Source: Moniliophthora roreri
Lineage: Eukaryota; Basidiomycota; Agaricomycetes; Agaricales; Marasmiaceae
Reading direction: 5' to 3'
NCBI GenBank assembly: GCA_001466705.2
Contig: LATX02000216.1
Span: 62,001-126,000 of the forward strand
DNA length: 64,000 bases
The position numbers were made by a program, and so were the translations under genes. Within the stretch, counting starts at the first letter, position 1. The number at the start of each line of letters is the position of its first letter. Below, one piece after another: positions 34,001 to 35,656 of this stretch. The notes beneath the pieces were generated by a model, which did no database searches, was not told the DNA's origin, and saw only the letters and a list, made by a program, of their open reading frames with translations.

Positions 34001-34715
34001 ACTCCAAGAAGAAACATATTCCCTTATGGAGTTAGCAAGGAGGAAAATGGAAGGAACAACTAAACGGTCGTTCACCCCATTCACAGTAGGACAAAAGGTG
34101 TGGTTAGAAGGGAGAAACCTTAACTTCGGGTATCCATCAAAGAAGTTAGCACCAAAAAGAGAAGGACCCTTCAAGATCGAGTCAGTACTAGGACCAGTGA
34201 CATACAAACTGACCATACCCGAACAATGGAAAGTTCACCCTGTTTTCCACCCATCTCTCTTATCCCCGTACAAACGAAACGAAGTCCACGGAAGGAACTT
34301 TCTAAAACCACCACCTGATCTGATAGAAGGACAAGAGGAACACGAGATAGAGGCGATCATCGGACACACCCCGAAAAGGAAACCTCAAAGGTTTCTAGTA
34401 TCCTGGAAGGGATATCCCTCAGCAGAGAATGAATGGCTATGGGAAAAAGACTTCGAACATGCCAAAGAGACATTAGCAGACTATAAAAAGGCCAACAAGC
34501 TTAGGAAAATCCTCACCAAAGCACTTCTATCAAAATGTCTCAATCCTACACTTACGAAAACCTTCGCCCAACCGCAGCCCAACTCCTTTACCTCCTCAAC
34601 AACACCACTTACAGGGAAAGGATCTTCACGGCAGCTAGAGATACTCCCTTCGTCGACCATCTCTTCGGAGACTATCAGTTCGTTCAAAGACAATACCAAC
34701 ACTTTGACCAACTGA
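31023..34715 (+). pseudogene. Gypsy-2 pol (protease, RT, RNase H, integrase, chromodomain), four internal stops
   Basis: Pol stays in one frame throughout. The protease has LLDSGAEGNFI near 31165-31200. The reverse transcriptase has YMDD at 32175-32186. RNase H has ECDASKWATG and NYEIYDREL. The integrase zinc-binding part has HLGQF...CAKCQ; its core acidic residues sit in TMDLITD, SDRDPQF and GESERVNQE. The chromodomain is at about 34340-34500 (FLVSWKGYPSAENEW). Stops are TGA at 31527, 31992 and 32220 and TAG at 32919. Two of the TGA codons sit where gypsy-1 has Arg, consistent with CGA to TGA. The last 180 bases overlap ORF3 in another frame. Confidence 0.93.
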
Positions 34716-35656
34716 TGACCGCCGCCAATCTCCAACTCAACAGGCTCGCCGTCGACATAGCCGCATCAGGATTCACCATCCCGGGACAGTTGACGGTACC
34801 GATGATTTGCGCCCCAGAAATCTTTCCCCCTCATCCCTTTTCCCAATCAGATTACACCGCCGCCCCCAGGGGAGAGACATCTCCCACAGGCGGACTGGAA
34901 TATCCTCCTCGATCTCCCGAGGAGGCCCTCGAGGACTATGAGCTCATCGAACCTTCCCGTGCCACCTCCACCCCCATCCAGATCTACCGTTTCAATACAG
35001 ACGGGTTTGATCGACCAGAACCATCTCCGAGTCCCGAGCCCCGTCCTTCCCCCATCCCCTCCACCGCAACCAGAGCGTCAGCGCCCCCGGAACCCGTCCC
35101 CCGATCCGTCCAGCTCAGAGTCTAGTTCAGCCCTGAGGTCGAACAGATCCCCATCACCCGAGCTGAACTTGACAGAACCCCTACCCCACCCCTTTGCATT
35201 CCTTTCACCATCCCAGCAAACAGCAACCCCGAGAACACCTGGACCACCAGGGATTGGAACACCCCAGATCCATGGGATACCTCCTTCTGGACTCTCCGCC
35301 CCGTCACCCCCGAACGAACCGTCCCTCCCAGAAAACAACGGCGACACCACAACAACCGAACTCGAAAGTCCACCGTCATCCTCAGCACCCAGTCCAATAT
35401 CCATTCCCGAGTTCATCAATGCGATCAATGCAGTAAGCGGGGTCACCATACACAGGACTGTCGAGACTACCAGTGTTCGGTCTGCGACACATACCAACCT
35501 CACCATCTCTCTGAACATTGCCCACAATTACGACGAAGCGAACGAATTTTTATCGCAAGGTCTGTTTGGAGTCATCCAACTCTTGATGGCTTTGAGGAGG
35601 ACTACACTGATTTGTCCACCCTCTCCAATCTCACCGACAAGCCCCATTTCTACTGA
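34535..35656 (+). CDS. Gypsy-2 ORF3: accessory protein with two tandem zinc knuckles (one internal TAG)
   Basis: This frame of about 373 codons starts at ATG 34535 inside the end of pol and stops at TGA 35654-35656. One TAG (35123-35125) interrupts it. The N-terminal 90 residues look folded and helical (QLLYLLNN, FQHFDQLM-like). A Pro/Ser/Thr/Glu-rich linker follows. Near residues 296-329 come C-x2-C-x4-H-x4-C (35420-35461) and C-x2-C-x6-H-x4-C (35474-35521), then about 45 residues with an acidic patch. Gypsy-1 has the same layout in the same place. A longer overlapping frame (34938-35885) is Pro/Ser-rich before 35656, but its end looks protein-like, so a further frameshifted extension is possible. 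Nucleic-acid binding is likely; anything beyond that is unknown. Confidence 0.65.

What the first reader, a model, noticed from the sequence alone, without database searches (positions are those of the whole stretch)
34535..35656. Accessory ORF with two tandem zinc knuckles downstream of the chromodomain, shared by both chromoviruses
In gypsy-2 a 373-codon frame overlapping the end of pol carries C-x2-C-x4-H-x4-C (35420-35461) and C-x2-C-x6-H-x4-C (35474-35521). In the diverged gypsy-1 the same position and frame (20331-19291, minus) keeps both knuckles (19512-19471, 19458-19411), the same spacing classes and a similar N-terminus (QLLxLxN...Y...AA). No frameshifts but several stops in gypsy-1 suggest that it was protein-coding until it decayed. 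Standard Ty3/gypsy elements have a zinc knuckle in gag only. An extra double-knuckle protein in the position where some elements carry env is unusual and may be undescribed.
Basis: partly seen in the sequence, partly recalled or inferred. Interest (0 to 1): 0.82.

Follow-up and report, generated by a model that had tools for sequence, protein, structure and literature searches.

The report
Two-protein overlapping gene in fungal retrotransposons
Jumping elements in this cacao-pathogen fungus carry, behind their usual genes, an extra gene that appears to make two different proteins from the same DNA by either keeping or removing a tiny intron, a layout that recalls complex retroviruses.

Summary
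The accessory frame is real and coding, but it is half of the story. In the window it is interrupted (TAG, 35123-35125). Over 20 gypsy-2-type copies its dN/dS is 0.27, and zinc ligands are kept in 157 of 160 cells. Both proteins seem to share the N-terminal helical domain, at whose end lies a 52-70-bp GT...AG segment, 1 mod 3 long in every copy measured. In gypsy-2-type copies the constrained frame is the knuckle frame just before the donor (0.15) and the +1 frame just after the acceptor (0.20, against 0.97), upstream of any in-frame ATG. So: segment retained = N-domain + double knuckle; segment spliced out = N-domain + ORF4 domain. Five families in this genome show the layout in the copies read; ORF4 gives 151 matches. 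The host is most likely Moniliophthora roreri, and protein searches found relatives there only. No RNA evidence was available; splicing and function are inferred.

The parts
34535..34795 (+). gypsy-2 accessory locus, exon 1: ATG and N-terminal helical domain (NTD), 87 codons, knuckle frame; shared by both predicted products
   Evidence: f0 dN/dS 0.13 against 1.24 and 1.62 in the other frames, 18 copies; predicted helices 14-22, 24-34, 38-77, block-mean pLDDT 86-95 over residues 11-90; overlaps the pol tail (to 34715) in another frame
34796..34850 (+). putative retained intron, 55 bp, GTACCG...AATCAG; length = 1 mod 3, so removal joins the NTD to the ORF4 frame
   Evidence: GT in 23 of 24 copies, AG in 24 of 24, a +1-frame stop inside in 24 of 24; no RNA evidence
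34851..35656 (+). ORF3 continuation in the knuckle frame (unspliced product); TAG at 35123-35125 interrupts this copy
35420..35461 (+). zinc knuckle 1, C-x2-C-x4-H-x4-C
   Evidence: ligands kept in 78 of 80 cells over 20 copies
35474..35521 (+). zinc knuckle 2, C-x2-C-x6-H-x4-C
   Evidence: ligands kept in 79 of 80 cells over 20 copies
34851..35885 (+). ORF4 frame (+1 to the knuckle frame), open from the acceptor on; in this copy it runs into the LTR, because 14 bp present in the other 17 aligned copies (end of ORF4 and purine-rich tract) are absent between 35802 and 35803
35657..35808 (+). ORF4-only tail between the ORF3 stop and the 3' LTR (LTR starts TGTTACA at 35809)
   Evidence: f1 dN/dS 0.17-0.20 against 1.1-1.2 in the other frames, 18 copies
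29920..31029 (+). gypsy-2 gag (29920-30825, in-frame stop, then gag's own CCHC knuckle in 30826-31029)
   Evidence: Pfam Retrotrans_gag and zf-CCHC above cut-off
31029..34715 (+). gypsy-2 protease, RNase H, integrase and chromodomain (about 34344-34490), in broken frames
   Evidence: Pfam on three of the pieces; ORF list; pol alignment over 30909-34502
19291..20445 (-). gypsy-1 ORF3 (family A), decayed: 9 internal stops; knuckles at 19512-19471 and 19458-19411
   Evidence: intact family members
20031..20082 (-). gypsy-1 putative intron, 52 bp, GTACTA...CTGCAG
   Evidence: same length and place in 29 of 29 family-A copies measured
19065..19290 (-). gypsy-1 ORF4-only tail in the +1 frame, one internal stop, ends ...TELYRDGES
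   Evidence: family A tail f1 dN/dS 0.10

Best explanation
The locus behind pol is one accessory unit that encodes two proteins with a common N-terminal domain and different C-terminal parts in overlapping reading frames. Shown by sequence: (1) the knuckle frame is coding; (2) the +1 frame (ORF4) is coding, at least in its tail in families A and B and right after the GT-AG segment in B; (3) the constrained frame switches across the GT-AG segment in B. Inferred: the segment is a spliceosomal intron that is kept in part of the RNA. Unspliced RNA gives NTD + double zinc knuckle (ORF3, 376-392 aa in intact A and B copies); spliced RNA gives NTD + proline/serine-rich linker + a small helix-hairpin-helix domain (about 410-475 aa). 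Inferred and less sure: the NTD, with a helix of about 40 residues, oligomerises; the knuckle form binds nucleic acid, most likely the element's own unspliced RNA, as a second nucleocapsid-like factor; the acidic ORF4 form joins it through the NTD and regulates it, so that the splicing ratio sets the balance.
For: ORF3 coding: dN/dS 0.27 over 20 copies; ligands kept in 157 of 160 and 224 of 224 cells. ORF4 coding: tail 0.20 [0.13-0.32] in family B (18 copies) and 0.10 [0.05-0.15] in family A (28 copies), other frames 1.05-1.73. Frame switch in B: in the 84 nt before the donor f0 0.15, f1 1.20; from the acceptor to the first in-frame ATG (29 codons) f0 0.97 [0.55-1.79], f1 0.20 [0.11-0.36], so ORF4 must be read from upstream; yet a +1-frame stop lies inside the segment in 24 of 24 B copies, and in 8 of them the acceptor's own TAG is such a stop. 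Splice-like signals in B: in the first 420 nt the only GT kept in at least 22 of 23 distinct copies are at the start codon and the donor; the only AG kept in 23 of 23 are the acceptor and one at index 406. Invariant third positions in 22 copies: 3 of 104 before the acceptor, 59 of 269 from it on, Fisher p 1.6e-6. Length 1 mod 3 in every copy measured: 52 (A, 29), 55 or 58 (B, 24), 61 (D, 7), 67 and 70 (E, 2), 55 (F, 1). Family D: 7 of 10 copies (6 of 9 distinct) have the segment, 3 lack it, and in two of these (L089, L093) NTD and ORF4 lie in one frame; L089 is open over 475 codons. Two M. roreri gene models (P0008, P0010) place exactly this intron.
Against: No RNA data could be examined. Of the ten gene models viewed only two place this intron; most of the others join the frames elsewhere, and the models are ab initio plus protein alignment (passages of PMC3948071). 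Synonymous shuffling does not show the +1 frame to be more open than expected in the overlap: P 0.06-0.66 in the 7 copies tested. A second test of the overlap was uninformative, since the control region scored alike; in B from 150 nt after the acceptor to the ORF3 stop the ORF4 frame has only 0.88 and 0.69. In family A the first 150 nt after the acceptor are constrained in the knuckle frame (0.17), not in ORF4 (0.81), so the join is less clear there, and its GT and AG lie in a stretch conserved anyway. A branch-point-like TAAC is seen in D only (6 of 7). The D losses lie between 9-bp direct repeats, and none of the 53 A and B copies lacks the segment, so plain deletion explains them as well. 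One D copy (L094) fits the same borders only with mismatches. Pfam cut-offs for zinc knuckles are not reached. E and F rest on two and one partial loci; in L097 the knuckle frame stops before the knuckles.
Confidence: 0.78

Rival explanations
1. ORF4 is reached by a +1 ribosomal frameshift near the end of the NTD, not by splicing.
For: ORF4 lies in the +1 frame of the NTD in families A and B, and the frame switch does not by itself tell a frameshift from splicing.
Against: A stop in the +1 frame lies inside the segment in 24 of 24 B copies, and in 8 of them the acceptor's own TAG, the last codon of the segment, is such a stop; a frameshift would not explain the near-invariant GT and the invariant AG, nor NTD and ORF4 in one frame in two D copies that lack the segment.
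Confidence: 0.1
2. One reading: one accessory protein (double knuckle); the +1 frame is open by composition alone.
For: The shuffle test is not significant in the overlap; the region is rich in P, S and T, which keeps stops rare.
Against: The +1 frame has dN/dS 0.20 and 0.10 in its tail, where the knuckle frame is closed, and 0.20 just after the acceptor; a query with the ORF4 part of family D finds 151 matches, and 87 of the 150 listed rows have no stop (my count; rows are matches, not copies).
Confidence: 0.05
3. Two separate genes that overlap: ORF3 from its ATG and ORF4 from an internal ATG (34938 in the window).
For: That ATG is kept in 16 of 18 B copies.
Against: The 29 codons upstream of it, back to the acceptor, are constrained in the ORF4 frame and not in the knuckle frame; in D copy L089 ORF4 is in frame with the NTD.
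Confidence: 0.07
4. ORF3 or ORF4 is an envelope-like protein.
For: It lies behind pol, where ORF3 is usually assumed to be env, and such ORF3s are typically made from spliced RNA (passages of PMC5408684).
Against: No 19-residue stretch with mean hydropathy above 1.57 in the nine sequences tested; knuckles suit RNA or DNA binding. No dedicated signal-peptide or membrane predictor was run.
Confidence: 0.02

Closest known systems
Fungal chromoviruses (Ty3/gypsy with chromodomain; basidiomycete clades MarY1, Laccy1, Laccy2, Tcn2, Puccy1, Puccy2 and Tcn1 as named in PMC2864245, passages)
   Same: gag with a knuckle, protease, RNase H, integrase, chromodomain, LTRs. Pol parts of families A, B and D are 59-66% identical.
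   Different: A double-coding accessory locus lies between the chromodomain and the 3' LTR. The Fig. 3 legend of PMC2864245 lists an 'add. ORF' with unknown function for some elements (passages read; figure and supplementary tables not seen), so which elements and whether it is related could not be checked. I did not place these families in a clade.
LTR retrotransposons with an ORF3 behind pol (bdelloid Juno and Vesta; plant extra ORFs; Drosophila gypsy env)
   Same: Extra ORF in the same place; typically spliced (passages of PMC5408684 and PMC8096092).
   Different: As I recall it, there the splice joins a leader to one ORF. Here a tiny intron inside the ORF would choose between two overlapping frames. 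No domain above Pfam's cut-offs was found.
Complex retroviruses with overlapping spliced genes (tat/rev, tax/rex; recalled, no call)
   Same: Overlapping frames near the 3' end, with splicing deciding which is read, and unspliced RNA also needed as genome.
   Different: No sequence relation shown; here both products would share an N-terminal domain and one carries double knuckles.
Retroviral nucleocapsid CCHC knuckles
   Same: C-x2-C-x4-H-x4-C and a longer second knuckle; 13 of 17 weak PDB profile matches are retroviral Gag-derived chains (best E 0.037, my count).
   Different: Not in gag; second knuckle has x6; Pfam cut-offs not reached (zf-CCHC_5 14.8 bits against 27).

Membership tests
Ty3/gypsy chromovirus (host element) | Gag, aspartic protease, RT/RNase H, integrase and a chromodomain at the end of integrase | tested here: met
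   Pfam hits above cut-off for gag, protease, RNase H, integrase and Chromo (E 2e-6) on window pieces; the RT core itself was not scanned by Pfam, but pol aligns through it at 59%
CCHC zinc-knuckle protein (ORF3) | C-x2-C-x4-H-x4-C pattern kept under selection | tested here: met
   Knuckle 1 ligands 78 of 80 (B) and 112 of 112 (A) cells; second knuckle deviates with x6
CCHC zinc-knuckle protein (ORF3) | Score above Pfam's curated cut-off | tested here: not met
   Best 14.8 bits against 27; filed by pattern, not as a Pfam member
Spliceosomal intron | GT...AG borders at one place in the copies, length that switches frame | tested here: met
   A 29 of 29; B 23 of 24 GT and 24 of 24 AG; D 7 copies, E 2, F 1; all lengths 1 mod 3
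Spliceosomal intron | Branch point near the acceptor | tested here: inconclusive
   TAAC shortly before the AG in 6 of 7 D copies; none recognised by eye in A or B
Spliceosomal intron | Spliced RNA | not testable with these tools
   No transcript data held
Env-like ORF3 | Signal peptide and transmembrane segment | tested here: not met
   Highest 19-residue Kyte-Doolittle mean 1.57 over nine sequences, some partial; simple test only
Double-coding (overlapping) gene | Purifying selection in both frames | tested here: met
   clear after the acceptor in B, in exon 2 nt 150-450 in A (f1 0.49, f0 0.65) and in both tails; weak or unclear elsewhere in the overlap

The most novel reading that the evidence does not exclude
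A lineage of fungal chromoviruses has evolved retrovirus-like regulated expression: keeping or removing a 52-70-bp intron selects between two overlapping frames and so between two regulators with a shared oligomerising domain, one RNA-binding (double knuckle) and one acidic, so that the element senses and controls its own splicing or packaging. Copies without the intron in family D would be reverse transcripts of the spliced RNA.
Probability: 0.5. Interest if true: 0.85.

Novelty: new variant of a known kind. Interest (0 to 1): 0.72.

Why it matters
Most fungal Ty3/gypsy elements are described with gag and pol alone (passages of PMC2864245). Here a high-copy group keeps a third, double-coding gene with two constrained products and a putative intron that must stay unspliced in the genomic RNA. 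That would make the question how complex retroviral gene control arises testable in a cellular, non-viral element. It also shows that annotation has listed parts of these proteins as fungal 'hypothetical proteins' and 'reverse transcriptase-rnase h-integrase', and it offers many paralogous copies in which to measure selection on overlapping frames.

Full report
WHERE THIS IS. The window is G000:C115:62001-126000 of a 59.4-Mb, 154-contig genome. Two proteins named WG66_... [Moniliophthora roreri] lie on contigs of exactly the length of C106 and C151 (468550 and 206065), and one M. roreri protein is 98% identical to copy L015 over 23% of it, so the host is most likely M. roreri, the frosty-pod-rot fungus of cacao.

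CHECK OF THE OBSERVATION. The gypsy-2 query has 39 DNA matches in the genome at 66-100% identity. Of 24 near-full copies 20 have a length divisible by 3; L015 is fully open (376 codons), and L023 has no stop but a late frameshift. NG86 dN/dS over 20 copies is 0.27 in this frame, 0.74 and 1.37 in the other two forward frames; beyond the pol overlap it is 0.37 and 0.27. The zinc ligands are kept in 157 of 160 cells in 20 gypsy-2-type copies (family B) and in 224 of 224 cells in 28 gypsy-1-type copies (family A), where the mean identity of the whole protein to the reference copy is 0.75 and 0.85.

THE SECOND FRAME. The ORF list shows a 315-aa ORF (34938-35885) in the +1 frame. In B copies this frame goes on past the ORF3 stop to a stop right before the LTR. 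In that tail its dN/dS is 0.17-0.20 over 18 copies, with 1.1-1.2 in the other frames. The window copy lacks 14 bp there that the other 17 aligned copies have, so that its ORF4 runs into the LTR. Family A has the same layout: ORF3 is intact, 387-392 codons, in 8 distinct loci (L041/L049, L043/L053, L045, L055, L065, L070, L071, L072), and the +1 frame extends 77 codons past the ORF3 stop in 7 of these 8; in L065 it stops after 46. Of 41 A sequences 29 aligned over the whole stretch; inside the reading frames their indels are multiples of 3 in 28 of 29 (L056 has one of 23), also in the tail, and turn irregular after the ORF4 stop. The A tail has dN/dS 0.10 [0.05-0.15], the other frames 1.73 and 1.05.

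HOW THE TWO ARE JOINED. In family D, copy L089 has the N-terminal domain and ORF4 in a single frame (475 codons), whereas L091 has the N-terminal domain in the knuckle frame; L091 carries an extra 61-bp GT...AG segment. Of 10 D copies 7 have it (two of them identical, so 6 of 9) and 3 (L089, L093, L094) do not; L093 sits between segment-bearing L091 and L104 in a small tree (supports 0.94 and 0.98), so loss happened more than once. The same place in A and B carries GTAC[C/T]...AG of 52 and 55 (once 58) bp, in E 67 and 70, in F 55, always 1 mod 3. In B the donor is one of only two GT kept in at least 22 of 23 distinct copies within 420 nt, the other being at the start codon, and the acceptor is one of only two AG kept in 23 of 23. 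Third codon positions in 22 copies are hardly ever invariant before the acceptor (3 of 104, two of which are the start codon and the donor GTA) and more often from it on (59 of 269), p 1.6e-6. Most telling, the frame under constraint changes across the segment: f0 0.15 and f1 1.20 in the last 84 nt before the donor; f0 0.97 and f1 0.20 in the 29 codons from the acceptor to the first in-frame ATG. ORF4 is therefore read from upstream; but the +1 frame has a stop inside the segment in 24 of 24 B copies, in 8 of them the acceptor's own TAG among others, so plain reading, or in those 8 a frameshift within the segment, does not do it. Families E (L097, L098) and F (L099) show the same anatomy in the parts read: ORF4 open over 359-382 codons, the knuckle frame with both knuckles open to the locus edge in L098 and L099, stopped early in L097. 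Two M. roreri gene models, P0008 and P0010, have this very intron; most of the other eight viewed join the frames elsewhere, and those models are ab initio (passages of PMC3948071).

WHAT SPEAKS AGAINST. There is no RNA. The +1 frame is not more open than synonymous shuffles would give, and in the middle and end of the overlap its dN/dS is 0.88 and 0.69 in B. In family A the first 150 nt after the acceptor are constrained in the knuckle frame only. The D segment is flanked by a 9-bp direct repeat, and none of 53 A and B copies lacks the segment, so the D losses may be plain deletions. A branch-point-like TAAC occurs in D (6 of 7) but was not recognised in A or B.

SPREAD. The ORF4 part of family D used as query gives 151 matches in the genome; of 150 listed rows 87 have no stop inside (my count; rows are matches, not copies). 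The ORF3 query of family B gives 92 rows, the last 47 of them distant, mostly around the knuckles and many in intact frames of about 390 codons; seven of these distant places were opened, of which six belong to family A and one to D. Pol parts of A, B and D are 59-66% identical, so the locus is probably old within this group (inference). Pol of E and F was not compared. Protein searches found relatives in M. roreri only, within the limits of that tool.

WHAT IT MAY DO. The N-terminal domain is predicted with confidence as two short helices and one of 40 residues, which suggests a coiled coil or bundle that makes dimers or more (inference). The knuckle part fits binding of single-stranded nucleic acid (established for CCHC knuckles of nucleocapsids; recalled). 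The ORF4 part is acidic, largely without predicted structure, with a helix-hairpin-helix domain at pLDDT about 80. No fold match is strong enough to name. The most economical model is a pair of regulators with a common assembly domain: the knuckle form is made from, and binds, unspliced RNA; the ORF4 form is made from spliced RNA. How ORF3 is translated behind pol is open: in B its ATG lies inside the pol frame, with an overlap of 178-190 nt in 22 of 24 copies; in the intact A copies the pol stop lies a few bases upstream of the ATG (read by eye); in L089 pol and the accessory ORF are in one frame, separated by a stop.

KNOWN OR NEW. Extra ORFs behind pol are known in plant, rotifer and insect elements, and an 'add. 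ORF' of unknown function is named in a figure legend on fungal gypsy elements (PMC2864245, passages only). I found no report of a double-coding, intron-switched locus in a fungal element in ten searches of an open-access library. I rate it a new variant of a known kind.

Noticed in passing
26666-29225 and 36272 onwards: The gypsy-2 LTRs hold long arrays of a 71-bp tandem repeat (50 copies in one reported family), so the LTRs are long; a 383-bp LTR part outside the array is 99.0% identical between the two LTRs.
   Followed up: partly
11257-18036: Third LTR element of the window has Ty1/copia-like RT and RNase H motifs (recalled), not gypsy.
   Followed up: partly
L089 and L047 against L045: The ending TELYGDGE closes the knuckle frame (ORF3) in family D but the ORF4 frame, some 75 codons past the ORF3 stop, in family A; whether the DNA stretch moved or the peptide arose twice is unexplained.
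   Followed up: no
L091, L100-L105: The D-family GT-AG segment lies between direct repeats like GGTACCGTC; it may have arisen as a tandem duplication that became an intron.
   Followed up: no
Family B copies L009-L034: Stops in decayed copies are mostly TGA and often sit where relatives have arginine codons, which suggests C-to-T (RIP- or methylation-like) decay.
   Followed up: no
P0102 (WG66_011986), P0119 (WG66_011254): Automatic gene models fuse accessory-locus exons to a domain with Pfam PF00867 or to a gag domain; probably annotation artefacts, but capture of ORF4 exons by host genes is worth a look.
   Followed up: no
2237-2342 with 46001-46106; 4880-4940 with 45942-46002: Inverted repeat pairs 92-94% alike, 41-44 kb apart, perhaps copies of one further mobile element.
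   Followed up: no
L046 (G000:C115:190000-196000): A further, decayed relative of family B (knuckle frame plus +1 frame ending DTITITAPTGETQNLQIAP), about 41% identical.
   Followed up: partly
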